DNA from: Pyrinomonadaceae bacterium
GTDB lineage: Bacteria; Acidobacteriota; Blastocatellia; Pyrinomonadales; Pyrinomonadaceae
NCBI GenBank assembly: GCA_021228405.1
Contig: JAJQRF010000004.1
Coordinates: 310,001 to 374,000 of the forward strand
Reading direction: 5' to 3'
DNA length: 64,000 nucleotides
Within the stretch, counting starts at the first letter, position 1. Each line of letters opens with the position of its first letter. The notes under the pieces are model-generated. The model made no database searches and had not been told where the DNA came from. It saw nothing but the letters and a program-made list of their open reading frames with translations. Both the position numbers and the translations under genes were made by a program. Of the stretch, positions 29,590 through 37,022 are shown piece after piece.

Positions 29590-29671
29590 GCATCGTTCGC
29601 CGTCGGCTAAGGCAAGCAGTCTGTAAAACTGTGGCGGAAACGCCCGGAAGGTTCAAATCCTTCACGATGCA
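29590..29671 (+). tRNA. tRNA-Tyr (GTA)
   Basis: 82 nt, class II with a long variable arm (GGCGG-AAA-CGCCC), anticodon loop CTGTAAA. Acceptor GCATCGT/ACGATGC is identical to that of the tRNA-Gly after rtcB, and T arm is GAAGG-TTCAAAT-CCTTC. First tRNA of the island. Confidence 0.93.
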
Positions 29672-29679
29672 ATCAAACC

Positions 29680-29752
29680 GTGAGCGAAACTCAAACGGCT
29701 GAGTGCCGGTCTTCCAAACCGGATGTTGCGGGTTCGATTCCCGTCGCTCACT
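29680..29752 (+). tRNA. tRNA-Gly (TCC)
   Basis: 73 nt, acceptor GTGAGCG/CGCTCAC, anticodon loop CTTCCAA, T loop TTCGATT. Discriminator T. It starts 8 bp after tRNA-Tyr. Confidence 0.92.
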
Positions 29753-29895
29753 TTTATTTTGGATTTTAGATTTTGGATTTTGGATTGGTCTATGGTGAAA
29801 GTCTTCAGTTAAATCGTAAATTGCATCCATTTTTAGCAAAATTGTGAGTAGATAGATAAAAAGCAAATCCAAAATCCAAAATCTAAAATCCTCAG

Positions 29896-29968
29896 AGGCG
29901 CGTAGTTTCAATTGGCAAAATGTCGGTTTCCAAAACCGAAGTTCTCAGTTCAAATCCGAGTGCGCCTG
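29896..29968 (+). tRNA. tRNA-Trp (CCA)
   Basis: 73 nt, acceptor AGGCGCG/TGCGCCT, anticodon loop TTCCAAA. The T stem CTCAG/CCGAG contains an A-C mismatch, and the D stem is weak, so it is structurally sub-optimal. Confidence 0.85.
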
Positions 29969-30102
29969 TCAATTTTTCTCCTCCAAAAGCCGTGAAGAAA
30001 AACGTGATTTCTTCTCCTCTCACCTCACAATTAGATTTTGGATTTCGGATTAATGCTATTTCTTCAATCCGAAATTCAAAATCTAAAATCCAAAATTCCC
30101 TT

Positions 30103-30179
30103 GGGGACGTGGCGCAATCGGAATTTAGCGCAGCTCCGTGCGAAGGAGCAGGTTGGAGGTTCGAGTCCTCTCGTTCCCT
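30103..30179 (+). tRNA. tRNA-Arg (GCG)
   Basis: 77 nt, acceptor GGGGACG/CGTTCCC, D stem GCGC, anticodon loop GTGCGAA, T arm GGAGG-TTCGAGT-CCTCT. Bacteria usually read CGN with an ACG (inosine) anticodon, so a GCG anticodon is unusual. The D loop is large (12 nt). Confidence 0.87.
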
Positions 30180-30189
30180 TTTGTTTTTA

Positions 30190-30264
30190 GGCTTCGTAGC
30201 TCAACGGATTTAGAGCGCAAGAACTCGAATCTTGAAGTTGCGGGTTCAAATCCTGCCGGAGCCG
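30190..30264 (+). tRNA. tRNA-Arg (TCG)
   Basis: 75 nt, acceptor GGCTTCG/CGGAGCC, D stem GCTC/GAGC, T arm GCGGG-TTCAAAT-CCTGC. The anticodon loop ACTCGAA has C at position 33, where U is nearly invariant. Confidence 0.83.
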
Positions 30265-30328
30265 TTTCGATTTGGGATTTCAGATTTCGGATTGAAAGTT
30301 TCGTAATTTGAAATTCGTAATTGAATAT

Positions 30329-30399
30329 TTCGGGTTCGTCTAACGGCAGGACGGCTGACTTTGAATCAGTAAATAGAGGTTCGAATCCTTTACCCGAAG
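30329..30399 (+). tRNA. tRNA-Gln (TTG)
   Basis: 71 nt, acceptor TTCGGGT/ACCCGAA, anticodon loop CTTTGAA, T arm AGAGG-TTCGAAT-CCTTT, discriminator G. Confidence 0.9.
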
Positions 30400-30415
30400 C
30401 CAATTTTTTTCTTAA

Positions 30416-30490
30416 CCGGGTGTTCCGCAGATGGCTACACGGGCTTGCCTTGGGAGCAAGTGTTCGCTGGTTCGAATCCAGCTACCCGGA
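30416..30490 (+). tRNA. tRNA-Pro (TGG)
   Basis: 75 nt, acceptor CCGGGTG/TACCCGG, anticodon loop CTTGGGA, T arm GCTGG-TTCGAAT-CCAGC, discriminator A. Confidence 0.9.
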
Positions 30491-30501
30491 TTTTTTCTTA
30501 A

Positions 30502-30575
30502 GCCGGCGTGGTCTAAATGGCAAAGACGCGAGTCTTAGAAACTCGTTAATGTGAGTTCAAATCTCACCGCCGGTA
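30502..30575 (+). tRNA. tRNA with anticodon TAG (Leu codon CUA) but short variable loop
   Basis: 74 nt, acceptor GCCGGCG/CGCCGGT, D stem GTCT/AGAC, anticodon loop CTTAGAA, T arm GTGAG-TTCAAAT-CTCAC. The variable region is only TTAAT, whereas bacterial tRNA-Leu normally has a long class II variable arm. The charging identity is therefore doubtful. Confidence 0.82.
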
Positions 30576-30642
30576 TTTTGATTTTAGATTTCGGATTTTG
30601 GATTTTAGATTAAGTTGAAATCCGAAATCTAAAATCGCGTTT

Positions 30643-30717
30643 GGGTTGGTGATGTAATTGACAGCATAGAAGTCTTGCAAACTTCCTGTAAGGGTTTGAA
30701 TCCCTTCCGATCCACCA
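30643..30717 (+). tRNA. tRNA-Ala (TGC)
   Basis: 75 nt including an encoded ACCA end, acceptor GGGTTGG/CCGATCC, anticodon loop CTTGCAA. The T loop TTTGAAT has U instead of C at position 56, which breaks the usual G19-C56 contact. Confidence 0.83.
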
Positions 30718-30801
30718 GATTAGATTTTGGATTTTAGATTTTGGATTTTGGATTGAAAGGAGATCATTAATCCAAAATCTAAAACACGCAGTCCATTTCA
30801 A

Positions 30802-30873
30802 GAGGACGAATACAAAGGGTCGCGTGGCTGGTCTTTCAAGCCGGAGAAGCGGGTTTGAGTCCCGCCGTTCTTG
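30802..30873 (+). tRNA. tRNA-Glu (TTC), weak D arm
   Basis: 72 nt, acceptor GAGGACG/CGTTCTT with two G-U pairs, anticodon loop CTTTCAA on a wobble-rich stem, T arm GCGGG-TTTGAGT-CCCGC (U at 56). The D arm is poorly formed. Confidence 0.7.
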
Positions 30874-30947
30874 CCAAAATCATTCAAGATTTAAGGTTCA
30901 AACTCGTAAGTTTTTCAGACTTGAATTTTGAATCTTGAATCTTACCC

Positions 30948-31021
30948 GCGAGCATAGCCAAGCGGACGAAGGCGTTGGTCTGCAAAACCAATCACCGTCG
31001 GTTCAAATCCGACTGCTCGCT
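30948..31021 (+). tRNA. tRNA-Cys (GCA)
   Basis: 74 nt, acceptor GCGAGCA/TGCTCGC, D stem GCC/GGC, anticodon loop CTGCAAA, T arm GTCGG-TTCAAAT-CCGAC, discriminator U, as usual for tRNA-Cys. Confidence 0.92.
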
Positions 31022-31036
31022 TCAATTTTTCTTTTT

Positions 31037-31119
31037 GGAAACGTGATGAAACGGTAGCCATTGCGGTTTGCTAAACCGTCGGGTGAAAGCCTGTGCAGGT
31101 TCGAGTCCTGTCGTTTCCG
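31037..31119 (+). tRNA. tRNA-Ser (GCT)
   Basis: 83 nt, class II with a long variable arm, acceptor GGAAACG/CGTTTCC, anticodon loop TTGCTAA, T arm GCAGG-TTCGAGT-CCTGT, discriminator G. Confidence 0.9.
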
Positions 31120-31127
31120 TCAGATTT

Positions 31128-31194
31128 CGGGCGAATGCCGAAATGATTACATCAACTGTTAATTGAAAAGCATCATTTCGATTTTTGTCGCCCA
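31128..31194 (+). ncRNA. Y-RNA-like RNA, copy 1 (compact, no tRNA-like insert)
   Basis: A 67-nt hairpin. The terminal stem GGGCGA (31129-31134) pairs with TCGCCC (31188-31193), then an internal loop (AUGC against AUUUUUG), then an exact 9-bp stem CGAAATGAT (31139-31147) with ATCATTTCG (31172-31180). It shows the family marks: AATGCCG after the first stem, ATTACAT after the second, and TTGT before the closing CGCC. Confidence 0.72.
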
Positions 31195-31204
31195 ATTCAA
31201 TTTC

Positions 31205-31340
31205 AGGCGAATGCCGAAGCTGACTACACCGGTAGAGCGTTCGAGATAAAAAACTCGAAAGGTCGTCGGTTTAATTCCGACAGTTTGCGAAAGCGGACTT
31301 AGCTCAGTCAAAACAAAATGTCACTTCCCTCTTGTCGCCT
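31205..31340 (+). ncRNA. Y-RNA-like RNA, copy 2, with circularly permuted tRNA domain
   Basis: The terminal stem AGGCGA (31205-31210) pairs with TCGCCT (31335-31340). The inner GAAG-c-TGAC pairs with GTCACTTC. Between them lie, in order: D-stem 3' strand GAGC (31235-31238), an anticodon-like hairpin TTCGAG/CTCGAA, AGGTC, T arm GTCGG-TTTAATT-CCGAC (31265-31281), acceptor 3' strand AGTTTGC (31282-31288), a GAAA linker, acceptor 5' strand GCGGACT (31293-31299), TA, and D-stem 5' strand GCTC (31302-31305). That is a tRNA permuted at the D loop. Confidence 0.75.
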
Positions 31341-31350
31341 TTATTTTTAT

Positions 31351-31424
31351 GTGGTTCGTAGCTTAATCGGCAAAGCACTGCACTGTGAATGCAGCAAATG
31401 CGGGTTCAAATCCCGTCGTTCCAC
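31351..31424 (+). tRNA. tRNA-His (GTG)
   Basis: 74 nt including the G at position -1 opposite C73. Anticodon loop CTGTGAA, T arm GCGGG-TTCAAAT-CCCGT. The acceptor TGGTTCG/CGTTCCA holds two adjacent T-T mismatches (4-69 and 5-68), which is unusual for a functional tRNA. Confidence 0.82.
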
Positions 31425-31562
31425 CCAAAACATTTTGGATTTTAGATTTTGGATTTTGGATTTACTTTGAGGTTTAAAGGAGAGTTTTACAGTTCGATGG
31501 AGAGGTGAATTTTAGTTTAATCTTCAATCCGAAATCCGAAATCTAAAATCCAAAATCACTAT

Positions 31563-31635
31563 GGGGCTGTGGCAGAAAGGTTGATGCACTTCACTGTCTA
31601 TGAAGACGATGACGGTTCGAGTCCGTTCGGTCCCG
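31563..31635 (+). tRNA. tRNA-Asp (GTC)
   Basis: 73 nt, acceptor GGGGCTG/CGGTCCC, anticodon loop CTGTCTA, T arm GACGG-TTCGAGT-CCGTT, discriminator G. Confidence 0.88.
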
Positions 31636-31647
31636 CTCAAATTTTAT

Positions 31648-31719
31648 GGCTGAATAGCTGAGAAAGATTAGCGCAAGTTTGAAAAACTTGAGAGGTCGGT
31701 GCGATACCGACTTCAGCCA
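31648..31719 (+). tRNA. tRNA-Phe (GAA) with aberrant T loop
   Basis: 72 nt, acceptor GGCTGAA/TTCAGCC, anticodon loop TTGAAAA, discriminator A. The T arm is GTCGG-TGCGATA-CCGAC: position 55, normally U (pseudouridine), is G. The D stem is short. Confidence 0.82.
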
Positions 31720-31753
31720 TTTTACTTAAAACCGATCAACCTCAATATTTTTC

Positions 31754-31828
31754 AGCCGATTAGCTCAGTGGATCGAGAGCGGAAGTCTTCTAAACTTCAG
31801 GTCGTTGGTTCAAATCCAACATCGGCTA
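31754..31828 (+). tRNA. tRNA-Arg (TCT)
   Basis: 75 nt, acceptor AGCCGAT/ATCGGCT, D stem GCTC/GAGC, anticodon loop CTTCTAA, T arm GTTGG-TTCAAAT-CCAAC. Fully regular. Confidence 0.92.
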
Positions 31829-31842
31829 ATTCGATTTGTGAT

Positions 31843-31866
31843 TAAGGTTCAAATCCTTTTGTTCCG
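31843..31866 (+). pseudogene. tRNA 3'-end fragment
   Basis: AAGG-TTCAAAT-CCTT followed by TTGTTCC looks like a T arm plus acceptor 3' strand, with no matching 5' part nearby. Probably a broken tRNA gene. Confidence 0.45.
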
Positions 31867-31924
31867 AAATACATATGACAACTTTTAGTTTTTAACTTTG
31901 AATTTCCAGAAAATCCTACCTTAA

Positions 31925-32036
31925 CAAACGCGGACGAAAATTTGCGAGGACGAAAGAATGCTGAATCGATCATTCCTTTGTTCGCAACGAACACACTTGT
32001 CTTTTGTCTGAAGATGCAACTTAAAGTCCGCGTTTG
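31925..32036 (+). ncRNA. Structured RNA candidate with 11-bp closing stem
   Basis: CAAACGCGGAC (31925-31935) pairs exactly with GTCCGCGTTTG (32026-32036). Inside, GGACGAAAGAATG (31948-31960) can pair with CATTCCTTTGTTC (31971-31983), 13 bp with one bulge and G-U pairs, and GTTCG-CAA-CGAAC is an alternative hairpin. It lacks the GGCGAATGCCG mark of the Y-like family. A CCGAAA/TTTCGG hairpin at 32041-32056 follows. Confidence 0.55.
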
Positions 32037-32087
32037 CCTACCGAAACCGCTTTCGGTTCGGGGTTTTGGAAGACAGAAAAATTTTAT

Positions 32088-32160
32088 TGACGGATAACTC
32101 AATCGGTAGAGTGTCGCTCTGTTAAAGCGAAAGTTGCGGGTTCGAGTCCCGCTCTGTCAG
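32088..32160 (+). tRNA. tRNA-Asn (GTT)
   Basis: 73 nt, acceptor TGACGGA/TCTGTCA, D arm ACTC-AATCGGTA-GAGT, anticodon loop CTGTTAA, T arm GCGGG-TTCGAGT-CCCGC, discriminator G. Confidence 0.93.
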
Positions 32161-32250
32161 CCAATTCGATTTTGGATTGGGGATTGCGGATTGCGGATTA
32201 ATCAAAAACGTATAATCCGAAATCCGCAATCCCCAATCCAAAATCCTTTC

Positions 32251-32323
32251 AGGTCGGTAGCTAAGTGGTTAAAGCACTCGCCTTTTAAGCGAGGTATCGT
32301 GGGTTCAAATCCCACCCGACCTA
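32251..32323 (+). tRNA. tRNA-Lys (TTT)
   Basis: 73 nt, acceptor AGGTCGG/CCGACCT, anticodon loop CTTTTAA, T arm GTGGG-TTCAAAT-CCCAC, discriminator A. Last tRNA of the main array. Confidence 0.93.
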
Positions 32324-32405
32324 TTTCGATTTTGGATTTAGATTTTGGATTTTGGATTTTTTTTCAATCCGCAATCCCCAATCAAAAGCCGAAATCTCAA
32401 ACAGT

Positions 32406-32547
32406 TTGGCGAATGCTGAAAGGACTACATTGCCTGAGTAGCACGAGGTCGTTGGTTCGATTCCAGCCTTTCCGGTTTTTTAATTTGTCGGAAAGTAGCT
32501 CAGATGGTAGAGCGCGTAAAAAGTGTCCTTTCCAATCTTGTCGCCAA
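32406..32547 (+). ncRNA. Y-RNA-like RNA, copy 3, with tRNA domain permuted at the anticodon arm
   Basis: Terminal stem TTGGCGA (32406-32412) with TCGCCAA (32541-32547). Inner stem GAAAGGAC (32418-32425) with GTCCTTTC (32525-32532), exact. Between them: T arm GTTGG-TTCGATT-CCAGC (32451-32467), acceptor 3' strand CTTTCCG (32468-32474), a T-rich linker, acceptor 5' strand CGGAAAG (32489-32495, a perfect complement), TA, and a complete D arm GCTC-AGATGGTA-GAGC (32498-32513). The anticodon arm is replaced by the Y stem. Confidence 0.75.
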
Positions 32548-32612
32548 CTTTTCATTTAACATTCAGTATTTATCATTTATCGAAATTCTTACCTGTTAAA
32601 TGATAAATGTTT

Positions 32613-32721
32613 CGGGTGAATGCCGAAAAGACTATATCTCCAAACGTGCCTCGCGGAGTCAGATAACTCCGGTGATCCTAAGCTGTTCATGCACAAACTG
32701 TCTTTTGAATCTTGTCACCCT
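32613..32721 (+). ncRNA. Y-RNA-like RNA, copy 4
   Basis: Terminal stem GGGTGA (32614-32619) with TCACCC (32715-32720), which is a compensated C-G to T-A change against copies 1 and 7. Inner stem AAAAGAC with GTCTTTT. Family marks AATGCCG, ACTATAT and TTGT are present. The interior has a GGAGT/ACTCC hairpin and GTGC/GCAC pairing but no clear tRNA mimicry. It lies 116 bp upstream of rsr. Confidence 0.7.
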
Positions 32722-32836: not shown

Positions 32837-34402
32837 ATGGCTAACAAAAATTTATTTCAAACCGTGAAAGGTCTTTTCACACCGAAAGCCGATACCGTCA
32901 ACGAAGCGGGCGGAAAAGCTTATAAACTTCTGCCGAAACACGCTCTGGCGCAATATGCGGCGACGGGTTGTTTCTCGAACACGTTCTACGCGGATGCGGG
33001 CGAACAGCTTGACAAAGTTCTCGAACTAACCCGCGAGCTCGATGCCGAATTCGTTGCGAAAACCGCCGTTTATGCGCGTGAAAAAGGCTATATGAAGGAT
33101 ATGCCTGCCTTTCTAGTCGCAATTCTTTCGACGAAGGATAAAGCTCTTTTCGAGAAAGTTTTCCCGCGTGTCATCGAAAACGGCAAGATGCTGAGAAACT
33201 TCGTGCAGATTATGCGTTCGGGCGCGGTCGGGCGAAAATCGCTCGGTTCACTGCCGAAACGTATGGTGCGCGAATGGTTTGAAACGCGCCGCGCCGAAAC
33301 CATTTTCAAACAGTCCATCGGTCAAACGCCTTCGTTCGCCGACATTCTGAAAATGGTTCACCCGAAACCGAAGGACGCTGAAAAAGAAGCTCTTTACGGT
33401 TATTTCATCGGGCGCGAGATCGATGCGGACAAGCTTCCCGAAATCGTCAAAGCCTTTGAGAAATTCAAAAACGGCGACACTCTGGAAGTTCCGAACGTTC
33501 CGTTCCAGATGCTGACGGCTCTGCCGATCTCGACCAAAGAATGGACGCAGATCGCGCGAAATGCGCCTTGGCAAATGACCCGTATGAATCTCAACACATT
33601 CCAGCGTCACGGAGTTTTGAAGGATGCCGGAATGGTTGAGATGATCGCGAATCGTCTGCGCGACCGCGAAGCGATCCGTAAGGCGAAGGTTTTTCCTTAT
33701 CAACTGCTTTCGGCTTACACGGCGGCTTCCGCAAACCGCGAGATTCCGCGTGAAATTACCGAAGCATTACAGGACGCAATGGAAATTGCGACCGAAAATG
33801 TTCCTGAAATCAAAGGTAAAGTTTACGTTTTGCCTGATATTTCGGGTTCGATGCACTCGGCAGTGACGGGTTATCGCAAAGGCGCAACGTCGGCGGTGCG
33901 CTGTATCGACGTGGCGGCTCTGGTCGCGGCGGCGATTCTTCGTAAAAATCCGACGGCGGAAGTGATTCCGTTCTCGGACAATATCGTGAAGGCTGACCTG
34001 AATCCGCGTGATTCGGTGATGACCAACGCGCAAAAGCTCGCAAGACTGCCTTCGGGCGGCACGAACTGTTCCGCGCCGCTGGTTTCTCTCAACGCCAAAA
34101 ACGCGGGCGGCGATCTGGTCATCTACGTTTCCGATAACGAATCGTGGATGGACAGCAAACGCACGTGGAACAGCGGAACCGAAACGATGAAACAATGGAA
34201 CGCGTTTGCGGCTCGTAACAAAGACGCGAAACTCGTCTGCATCGACATCCAGCCTTACGCTCACACCCAAGCCCAGGAACGCGCCGACATCCTGAACGTC
34301 GGCGGCTTCAGCGACCAGGTATTCTCACTGATCGCCGAATTCGCCAACGGCACGATGAACGCCAATCATTGGGTTGGTGAGATCGAAAAAGTGGAATTGT
34401 AA
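32837..34402 (+). CDS. rsr: Ro60 homologue (TROVE + vWA domain)
   Basis: 521 residues. An N-terminal TROVE/HEAT-repeat ring (about 1-330) binds the ends of misfolded RNA and the stem of Y RNA. The C-terminal von Willebrand A domain has the MIDAS motif DISGSMHS with GGTNCS and SDNES. In Salmonella and Deinococcus, Rsr works with Y RNA and exonucleases in RNA quality control and stress recovery. GGAGGAAAC precedes the ATG. Y-like RNAs stand both before and after this gene, and rtcB follows 2.6 kb later, after inserted elements. Confidence 0.95.
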   Translation: MANKNLFQTVKGLFTPKADTVNEAGGKAYKLLPKHALAQYAATGCFSNTFYADAGEQLDKVLELTRELDAEFVAKTAVYAREKGYMKDMPAFLVAILSTKDKALFEKVFPRVIENGKMLRNFVQIMRSGAVGRKSLGSLPKRMVREWFETRRAETIFKQSIGQTPSFADILKMVHPKPKDAEKEALYGYFIGREIDADKLPEIVKAFEKFKNGDTLEVPNVPFQMLTALPISTKEWTQIARNAPWQMTRMNLNTFQRHGVLKDAGMVEMIANRLRDREAIRKAKVFPYQLLSAYTAASANREIPREITEALQDAMEIATENVPEIKGKVYVLPDISGSMHSAVTGYRKGATSAVRCIDVAALVAAAILRKNPTAEVIPFSDNIVKADLNPRDSVMTNAQKLARLPSGGTNCSAPLVSLNAKNAGGDLVIYVSDNESWMDSKRTWNSGTETMKQWNAFAARNKDAKLVCIDIQPYAHTQAQERADILNVGGFSDQVFSLIAEFANGTMNANHWVGEIEKVEL

Positions 34403-35394: not shown

Positions 35395-35506
35395 TGGCGA
35401 ATGCCGTCGGGATTACATGGCAATGACCTTTACGGTTTAGCGAGTTCAAATCTCGCCCGCTCCTTTTTGATCTTACGGAGCGGAAATCTCGGCAATTTTG
35501 TCGCCA
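35395..35506 (+). ncRNA. Y-RNA-like RNA, copy 5, with T-arm/acceptor minihelix
   Basis: Terminal stem TGGCGA (35395-35400) with TCGCCA (35501-35506). Inner stem GTCGGGAT with ATCTCGGC (8 bp with G-U). Inside: T arm GCGAG-TTCAAAT-CTCGC (35440-35456), directly joined to CCGCTCC (35457-35463), linker, GGAGCGG (35477-35483, perfect complement). That is an acceptor/T-arm minihelix with the acceptor ends joined by 13 nt. The D arm is missing. It ends 48 bp before the Uma2 start. Confidence 0.73.
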
Positions 35507-36460: not shown

Positions 36461-36788
36461 AGCGCAAACTCTCTTAAACGCAAACTCTGAATTTACGTTC
36501 GCACTCTCTGAACCGGCGTGCGCCAACCTTGAATTGGTGTCTGCCAAGTTTGAATTGAAACCTGCAAAGTTTGAACTGTCACCTGCCAAGTTTGAATTAG
36601 CGACTGCACACTCTGAACTGTCACCTGCAAAGTTTGAACTGACACCTGCACATTCTGAACTGTCACCTGCACATTTTGAACTGTCACCTGCAAAGTTTGA
36701 ATTGGAGTCTGCAAAGTTTGAATTGGCGACTGCACACTCTGAATTGGCGACTGCACACTCTGAATTGGCGACTGCACATTCAGATTTT
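36461..36788. repeat. Degenerate 21-bp tandem repeat (about 14 units)
   Basis: Units such as CCTGCAAAGTTTGAACTGTCA and ACTGCACACTCTGAATTGGCG repeat with 21-bp spacing from about 36490 on, with weaker units to 36461. Both strands are open for much of this length, as expected from an in-frame 21-bp unit, so the long ORFs here (heptads AHSEL/KFEL or VQSPIQ) are probably artefacts. Confidence 0.9.
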
Positions 36789-36850
36789 TGATCGCAAACG
36801 TCTTTTTTAACCGCCGAAACCCCCTGTTCGGCATCGAATAACTTTAACTT

Positions 36851-36921
36851 CGGGCGAATGCCGGAATGACTACATTTCTTTAGGGAAGAAAACCGTCCGT
36901 CATTTCATAAATTGTCGCCCT
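36851..36921 (+). ncRNA. Y-RNA-like RNA, copy 7 (compact)
   Basis: Terminal stem GGGCGA (36852-36857) with TCGCCC (36915-36920). Inner stem GGAATGAC (36863-36870) with GTCATTTC (36899-36906). The last pair against copy 1 changes from A-T to G-C while keeping pairing. Loop motif ACTACAT present. It lies 112 bp before the rtcB start. Confidence 0.72.
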
Positions 36922-36924
36922 TTT

Positions 36925-37022
36925 CATTTATCATTTATCATTTACCATTTATCATTGAGCGTTTATCTGTCGAAATTCACTTCCAACATTTCGATAAATG
37001 ATGAACGGTAAATGATAAATGT
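36925..37022. repeat. CATTTATCATTTA word snapback before rtcB
   Basis: CATTTATCATTTATCATTTACC words face AAATGATGAACGGTAAATGATAAATG just upstream of rtcB. A shorter example lies before Y-like copy 4 (about 32555-32610). Confidence 0.6.

What the first reader, a model, noticed from the sequence alone, without database searches (positions are those of the whole stretch)
31205..31340. Circularly permuted tRNA inside a Y-RNA-like hairpin, opened at the D loop
Inside copy 2 the parts of a tRNA occur in the order D-stem 3' half, anticodon-like hairpin, variable AGGTC, T arm, acceptor 3' strand, GAAA, acceptor 5' strand, TA, D-stem 5' half. Acceptor strands AGTTTGC and GCGGACT pair over 7 bp (two G-U), the D stem GCTC/GAGC closes across the Y helix, and the GAAA makes a tetraloop in place of the acceptor ends. 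It would fold as a near-complete tRNA whose D loop is the Y helix. tRNA mimicry by bacterial Y RNA (YrlA group) is established; this exact permutation is my reading of the sequence.
Basis: partly seen in the sequence, partly recalled or inferred. Interest (0 to 1): 0.9.

Follow-up and report, generated by a model that had tools for sequence, protein, structure and literature searches.

The report
D-loop-opened permuted tRNA in Y RNA
A small RNA encoded beside the Ro60 gene carries a whole tRNA shape whose pieces are in rotated order and opened at the D loop, a layout that recurs in several bacterial phyla and differs from the known bacterial tRNA-mimicking Y RNA.

Summary
The RNA at 31205-31340 has a Ro60-type Y-RNA stem around the parts of a tRNA in rotated order: D-stem 3' half, anticodon-like hairpin, variable loop, T arm, acceptor 3' strand, GAAA, acceptor 5' strand, U8A9, D-stem 5' half. 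Known YrlA (RF02553) is also a permuted tRNA mimic but opens at the anticodon; one lies at 32406-32550. By eye I found the D-loop-opened form beside Ro60 in at least 21 of 80 loci, from Acidobacteriota, Planctomycetota, Verrucomicrobiota, a Bacteroidota bin and Alphaproteobacteria. In 22 aligned members 28 of 32 proposed pairs show double changes and RNAalifold finds the same cloverleaf unaided. Put back in tRNA order, 13 of 20 are called tRNAs by ARAGORN (native order 0 of 20, shuffles 0 of 600); 9 of those 13 have no proper anticodon, and acceptors are capped, so most cannot decode. The function, probably an adapter between Ro60 and tRNA-recognising proteins near RtcB, is inferred. The primary Y-RNA papers were not readable here, so novelty is provisional.

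The parts
31205..31340 (+). D-loop-opened permuted tRNA-like Y RNA (the finding)
   Evidence: R2 95.8 bits (a training row)
31205..31210 (+). Ro60-type stem, 5' strand, with GGCGAATGCC motif running to 31215
   Evidence: pairs with 31335-31340; helix 97% paired in 22 sequences
31335..31340 (+). Ro60-type stem, 3' strand
31216..31224 (+). second Y helix 5' strand GAAG-C-TGAC (bulged C), pairing with 31320-31327
   Evidence: 77% of cells paired in this register; two of its pairs fail in 14 of 22 rows, and RNAalifold uses another register there
31231..31234 (+). GGTA, equivalent of tRNA 18-21
   Evidence: GG present in 22 of 22 by eye
31235..31238 (+). D stem 3' half GAGC
   Evidence: 97.7% of D-stem cells paired, 2 of 4 pairs with double changes
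31240..31259 (+). anticodon-like hairpin, 6 bp, 8-nt A-rich loop
31260..31264 (+). variable loop AGGTC (44-48)
   Evidence: C48 opposite G15 at 31307; 18 G-C, 2 A-U, 2 other of 22
31265..31281 (+). T arm, loop TTTAATT (U56 instead of C56)
31282..31299 (+). acceptor arm: AGTTTGC, GAAA cap, GCGGACT
31300..31307 (+). U8 A9, D stem 5' half GCTC, A14 G15
31129..31193 (+). neighbouring simple Y RNA (YrlB-like, far below threshold)
   Evidence: RF02565 24.4 bits over 31124-31196, gathering 97; fold z -3.6
32406..32550 (+). anticodon-opened tRNA-like Y RNA (YrlA)
   Evidence: RF02553 62.1 bits, just below gathering 69, full length
32614..32720 (+). further Y-like RNA
   Evidence: fold z only -0.74
35395..35506 (+). 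Y RNA with T arm plus capped acceptor hairpin and no D arm
36852..36920 (+). further simple Y RNA
32837..34402 (+). Ro60 (Rsr) gene
   Evidence: Pfam vWA_Ro60 69.3 bits, TROVE 36.1 bits
37012..38211 (+). RtcB RNA ligase gene
   Evidence: Pfam RtcB 426 bits
29590..32323 (+). tRNA gene array surrounding the Y RNAs
   Evidence: 16 tRNAs by ARAGORN, two more by Rfam

Best explanation
A Ro60-linked noncoding RNA of the bacterial Y-RNA kind. Its effector end folds as a four-armed tRNA mimic that is circularly permuted and opened in the D loop, at about positions 16/17 to 18, where the Ro60 helix enters. Shown by comparison: the secondary structure, conservation of most tRNA tertiary-contact positions, the linkage to Ro60 and in most loci RtcB, and the loss of decoding features in most members. 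Inferred: the L shape, Ro60 binding, and the role, namely that the RNA tethers Ro60 to a protein that recognises the tRNA elbow (a tRNA-modifying, -repairing or -degrading enzyme) or holds such a protein off damaged tRNA. The closed acceptor would make it a stable, non-chargeable adapter. Unlike YrlA it also displays an anticodon arm.
For: 22 aligned members: 88.3% of cells paired (68.7 shuffled), 28 of 32 pairs with double changes, covariation score 0.516 against 0.167 shuffled and 0.065-0.165 with partners slid. RNAalifold without guidance gives the same cloverleaf, 30 of 34 pairs with double changes. Tertiary pair 15-48: 18 G-C and 2 A-U of 22; a member found later, in G376 (80.4 bits), again has A-U by eye, and its own minimum-energy fold closes the D stem. 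Reordered pieces are called tRNA in 13 of 20, native order 0 of 20, shuffles 0 of 600. All 23 D-opened RNAs checked outside the window lie on the Ro60 strand, and RtcB is detected in 20 of those 23 loci. Genome-wide: the 6 of 396 genomes of the phylum with an R2 match at 1e-12 (4 D-opened, 2 anticodon-opened) are all among the 24 with Ro60. YrlA is reported as a substrate of DusA and TruB and to bind PNPase by its tRNA-like domain (PMC8394870, passages).
Against: No expression, probing or binding data. The window copy folded alone prefers a structure without the D stem, and L026 gives the D stem probability 0. Relatives that break the pattern: L079 5950 lacks the D stem; L126 11826 lacks the anticodon arm; L123 has a much reduced anticodon stem; L143/L160 lack a standard T loop; L171 and L173 have a D-stem mismatch; position 58 is not A in 5 of 22. 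The D stem varies little, so its covariation rests on two sequences. 7 of 20 reordered members are not called tRNA, and 2 of 22 could not be parsed. Shuffle controls do not correct for relatedness.
Confidence: 0.72

Rival explanations
1. A permuted tRNA gene, as in red algae: the transcript is cut at the joined acceptor and sealed (possibly by RtcB) to give a working tRNA.
For: Same kind of rearrangement; algal type I opens in the D loop at 20/21 (PMC3978253, passages). RtcB is encoded nearby. ARAGORN assigns a three-letter anticodon to 4 of 13 reordered members, and the viral member L191 has a 7-nt loop by eye; I raised this rival's odds from 0.03 to 0.04 for that.
Against: The acceptor ends are joined by a 4-nt cap in 15 of 20 parsed members, and the window cap GAAA leaves no room for CCA. 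By the longest-stem parse 1 of 20 anticodon loops is 7 nt, and 9 of 13 ARAGORN calls have no proper anticodon. The outer Ro60 stem is conserved and covaries.
Confidence: 0.04
2. Tandem-tRNA debris inside a tRNA array that happens to look permuted.
For: The window copy lies in an array of at least 16 tRNAs, and neighbouring ordinary tRNA genes can fit a loose descriptor (L182).
Against: The same order recurs in loci with 0 tRNAs (L100, L107, L121, L126, L136, L143, L146, L158, L171) with strong covariation. Strict descriptor: 1 hit in 58.5 Mb shuffled.
Confidence: 0.02
3. Same structure, different role: a decoy or sponge for anticodon nucleases or other tRNA-damaging enzymes, rather than a tether.
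For: This class keeps an anticodon arm that YrlA lacks, and the locus is of the RNA-repair kind. PMC7790460 (passages) offers inhibition of the anticodon nuclease as one possible role of YrlA.
Against: Anticodon loops are of varied length and sequence, 9 of 20 being tetraloops, not a uniform cleavable 7-nt loop.
Confidence: 0.2

Closest known systems
YrlA bacterial Y RNA (Rfam RF02553; structure 6CU1)
   Same: Ro60-type stem with GGCGAAUGC..UUGUCGCC; T arm, capped acceptor arm, U8A9 and D 5' strand in that order; circularly permuted tRNA mimic; Ro60/RtcB locus.
   Different: YrlA keeps the D arm as a hairpin and opens at the anticodon. Here the D arm is split by the Y helix and a separate anticodon-like hairpin is present. 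Rfam gives no YrlA match to the D-opened RNAs at gathering threshold in the 7 loci scanned, nor to the window copy at E 10.
Circularly permuted tRNA genes (Cyanidioschyzon type I, archaea)
   Same: tRNA halves in reversed order; type I junction in the D loop (PMC3978253, passages).
   Different: Short acceptor cap, no proper anticodon in most members, and embedded in a conserved Ro60-type stem. Processing was not tested.
YrlB (RF02565)
   Same: Ro60-type stem and nearby position.
   Different: No tRNA-like domain in the Rfam model shown; matches only the neighbouring short Y RNA, weakly.

Membership tests
bacterial Y RNA (Ro60-binding) | Ro60 stem motif at both ends | tested here: met
   AGGCGAATGCC..TTGTCGCCT; outer helix 97% paired in 22 sequences. 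The motif is recalled and agrees with the Rfam YrlA consensus.
bacterial Y RNA (Ro60-binding) | encoded beside a Ro60 (rsr) gene | tested here: met
   Window Ro60 gene starts 1.5 kb downstream; 23 of 23 others on the Ro60 strand (loci were mostly fetched by their Ro60 gene). Less biased: 6 of 6 R2-positive genomes in a 396-genome sample have Ro60.
bacterial Y RNA (Ro60-binding) | binds Ro60 protein | not testable with these tools
   needs a binding experiment
YrlA RF02553 | score at or above gathering cut-off | tested here: not met
   No YrlA row for 31125-31350 even at E 10
YrlA RF02553 | intact D hairpin, opening at the anticodon | tested here: not met
   D strands lie on either side of the rest. 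The 19 R2 matches of 68 bits or more are D-opened by eye, the next (66.0) is anticodon-opened; below that both kinds occur.
YrlA RF02553 | T arm, capped acceptor, U8A9, D 5' strand in that order | tested here: met
tRNA mimic | tRNA tertiary-contact positions kept | tested here: met
   A14 22 of 22, U8 20, U55 21, C56 21, A58 17 of 22; 15-48 G-C or A-U in 20 of 22. Window copy has U56.
permuted tRNA gene | 7-nt anticodon loop able to decode | tested here: not met
   Window loop is 8 nt and ARAGORN gives it a four-letter anticodon; class: 1 of 20 by longest stem, 4 of 13 by ARAGORN's parse
permuted tRNA gene | processable acceptor junction with 5' and 3' ends | tested here: inconclusive
   joined by GAAA in the window, 4-nt caps in 15 of 20; cleavage not tested
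permuted tRNA gene | bulge-helix-bulge splice motif | not tested
   no search made

The most novel reading that the evidence does not exclude
Ro60 Y RNAs carry several wirings of one tRNA fold: anticodon-opened (YrlA), D-loop-opened (this class, a complete four-armed mimic) and a T-arm-plus-acceptor form without D arm. Each could be a different frame cut from two neighbouring tRNA genes in a tandem array. That would make Ro60 loci a place where permuted tRNAs are made and kept, each presenting another face of tRNA to repair or decay enzymes.
Probability: 0.4. Interest if true: 0.8.

Novelty: new variant of a known kind. Interest (0 to 1): 0.66.

Why it matters
It extends bacterial tRNA mimicry from one permutation to at least two, in several phyla, with pair-by-pair evolutionary support including a tertiary pair. 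It gives structural biologists a near-complete tRNA mimic tethered at the elbow, and shows how freely the tRNA fold can be re-cut. It sharpens a testable question: which tRNA-recognising protein does Ro60 recruit, and why does one locus need differently opened mimics beside RtcB? It would also support a new Rfam family.

Tried and rejected
Single-sequence folding does not settle the D stem; the comparative alignment does. Rfam scans found no convincing family for the window copy. The first covariance model R1 (3 sequences) also matched ordinary tRNAs and other Y RNAs at roughly 10-65 bits, so the stronger hits were read by eye; the many weaker ones were not all read. The strict descriptor missed members with short or bulged acceptors; a looser one found no further member. 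In one search, 2 of 22 sequences (L077, L143) could not be parsed and were dropped. The G19 column is misaligned and is not used. The phylum search scored only 8 candidates per genome, so its 6 of 396 is a lower bound. The automatic scan counted at least one anticodon-opened RNA (L107) in its 18 'T-arm-plus-acceptor' loci. On first writing I took the best viral match for anticodon-opened; reading it (L191 9802-9929, 63.6 bits) showed a D-opened order with a 3-bp D stem, and L166 12057-12169 (56.2 bits) reads as a degenerate D-opened one. I read 13 of the 95 viral matches and 10 of the middle-range matches.

Full report
What is in the window. The stretch at 31205-31340 is flanked by the sequences typical of bacterial Y RNAs (GGCGAATGCC at the 5' side, TTGTCGCC at the 3' side). 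It lies in an array of tRNA genes: 16 by ARAGORN between 29590 and 32323 plus two more by Rfam. A Ro60 gene starts 1.5 kb downstream (Pfam vWA_Ro60 and TROVE) and an RtcB ligase gene follows at 37012. Other Y-like RNAs lie at 31129, 32406, 32614, 35395 and 36852.

Check of the observation. A description of this order inside a Y-RNA stem, written after the first members had been seen, found 7 hits, 5 of them distinct RNAs, in 5.85 Mb of real strands and 1 in 58.5 Mb of shuffled sequence. A looser description gave 13 rows, 7 of them false (anticodon-opened Y RNAs, ordinary neighbouring tRNAs in L182), and 2 in 23.4 Mb of shuffles.

What the known relative looks like. The neighbour at 32406-32550 matches Rfam YrlA over its full length at 62.1 bits (gathering score 69). 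The Rfam alignment shows the order anticodon-stem 3' side, T arm, acceptor, loop, acceptor, TA, D hairpin, anticodon-stem 5' side: a permuted tRNA opened at the anticodon (naming the outer pairs 'anticodon stem' is my reading). PMC11472068 (abstract and passages) states that bacterial Y RNA 6CU1 superposes on tRNAs with a circular permutation. The finding has no YrlA match even at E 10.

The class. Three close members (window, L026, L027) made model R1. With it, and by reading hits, I found D-loop-opened members beside Ro60 genes in other genomes of the window's family (L076, L077, L078) and in named records: Bryobacterales (L158), Planctomycetota (L101, L121, L146, L151, L173, and L107 with a tRNA-Leu-like D stem), Verrucomicrobia and PVC records (L100, L102, L108, L111, L126, L136, L152), a Bacteroidota bin (L123), Inquilinus limosus (L171), Labrys okinawensis (L143) and Labrys sp. 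(L160). By my hand-made list 21 of the 80 Ro60 loci kept by the scan carry one. An automatic scan of their plus strands finds anticodon-opened ones in 52 of 80 and T-arm-plus-acceptor ones in 18 of 80 (at least one of the 18 is misassigned), with none of either kind in three shuffles. Two weaker ones were read later: L166 (Massilia frigida, degenerate) and L191, on a 392-kb viral contig just upstream of its Ro60 gene.

Evolutionary test. In the alignment of 22 (A3), 88.3% of cells form standard pairs against 68.7% after shuffling, 28 of 32 pairs have changes on both sides, and the covariation score is 0.516 against 0.167 shuffled and 0.065-0.165 with partners slid by 1-3 columns. RNAalifold, given no structure, predicts the same permuted cloverleaf, with 30 of 34 pairs showing double changes. 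The D stem is nearly constant; its support is 97.7% pairing and two pairs with double changes. My register for the second Y helix is only 77% paired, and RNAalifold chose another. The tertiary Levitt pair 15-48 is G-C in 18, A-U in 2 and neither in 2 of 22. A member found with model R2 in another family, G376, again has A15-U48 by eye, and its own lowest-energy fold closes the D stem. In anticodon-opened Y RNAs, collected with position 15 limited to A or G, the same pair is G-C in 58 and A-U in 35 of 97, against a shuffled mean of 50.5 and maximum of 63 in 1000 shuffles. These shuffles do not correct for kinship.

Direct test of tRNA-likeness. Put into tRNA order with a CCA-type tail, 13 of 20 parsed members are called tRNA by ARAGORN; in native order 0 of 20; shuffled 0 of 600 (2 of 22 could not be parsed). 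Of the 13, 9 get no proper anticodon and 4 get a three-letter one (L026, L158, L102, L100). By the longest-stem parse 1 of 20 loops is 7 nt and 9 are tetraloops. Acceptor caps are 4 nt in 15 of 20, GNRA in 8. So most members are shape mimics that could not decode; the window copy has an 8-nt loop.

Specificity and linkage. Model R2 gives 19 matches of 68 bits or more in 94 sources, D-opened by eye (17 of them training rows); the next match, 66.0 bits, is anticodon-opened, and below that both kinds occur. In a sample of 396 genomes of the phylum, 6 have an R2 match at 1e-12, 4 of them D-opened and 2 anticodon-opened (G002, G016), and all 6 are among the 24 with Ro60. In 12 Ro60-bearing genomes searched more deeply, 5 had matches at 1e-8, and all 9 matches lie within about 1.5 kb of the Ro60 domain match; only one of the 9 is read as D-opened. 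Of 23 D-opened RNAs outside the window, all are on the Ro60 strand: 16 lie 102-555 bases downstream of the Ro60 match, 2 further downstream, and the 5 of the window's family 608-2854 bases upstream. RtcB is detected by tblastn in 20 of 23 loci, in 11 of them at under 30% identity.

Results against. The window copy and L026 folded alone do not favour the D stem. L079 5950 has lost the D stem, L126 11826 the anticodon arm, L123 most of the anticodon stem, L143 and L160 a standard T loop; L171 and L173 have a D-stem mismatch.

Function. Nothing here measures function. PMC8394870 (passages) reports that Y RNA links Ro60 to PNPase and that YrlA is modified by DusA and TruB; PMC7790460 (passages) describes the rsr-yrlBA-rtcBA operon, regulated by damaged tRNAs. 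By analogy the most likely role is an adapter between Ro60 and tRNA-recognising proteins in an RNA-repair locus. A decoy role is the main rival.

Novelty. Literature searches (listings; passages of eight papers read) showed no report of a D-loop-opened Y RNA, but the primary papers (Chen 2014, Wang 2018, Sim and Wolin 2018, Sim 2020) are not held here. D-loop opening is known for an algal permuted tRNA gene (PMC3978253, passages). I therefore call it a new variant of a known kind.

Noticed in passing
29590-32323 and loci L026-L030, L032-L035, L041, L042, L044, L045, L076-L078, L080: In 17 of 19 stretches of the window's family scanned, 9-35 tRNA genes with mostly different anticodons lie in the stretch, mostly upstream of Ro60 (L031 has 2 and L037 has 4). 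The 12 D-opened loci of other groups scanned have 0-5. A silent, stress-induced tRNA array is known in Anabaena (PMC10272220, passages).
   Followed up: partly
35395-35506; also L027, L028, L033, L044, L076, L077, L100, L102, L131, L134, L153, L159: A third kind of Y RNA: T arm plus capped acceptor hairpin, no D arm, with ACATGG or ACATNGG upstream that could supply the two D-loop G's.
   Followed up: partly
L191 9802-9929: A D-opened Y RNA on a 392-kb viral contig, just upstream of its Ro60 gene, with a 3-bp D stem and a 7-nt anticodon-like loop by eye.
   Followed up: partly
29756-29889, 30031-30086, 30580-30784, 31432-31557, 32168-32358: Spacers between the tRNA genes carry inverted repeats built of GATTTTGGATT/GATTTTAGATT units; 5 of 39 such units lie outside the array in the window.
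   Followed up: no
36493-36834: Short tandem protein-like repeat (TTTGAATTGGCGACTGCACAC-like units) between a Uma2-family gene and RtcB.
   Followed up: no
L171 11913-12053: Rfam tRNA hit of 30 bits bridges the end of a YrlA and the start of a D-opened Y RNA, so adjacent permuted mimics can be mis-annotated as one tRNA.
   Followed up: partly
L076 5094-5159; L041 6886-6955: ARAGORN calls parts of Y RNAs tRNA-SeC and tRNA-Ile, likely false annotations.
   Followed up: no
IMG/VR loci L174-L230: 57 viral contigs encode Ro60 relatives, many over 100 kb long; 38 of 57 have an R2 match at 1e-4, which includes tRNAs; RtcB is seen in 4 of 57, against 61 of 80 genome loci.
   Followed up: partly
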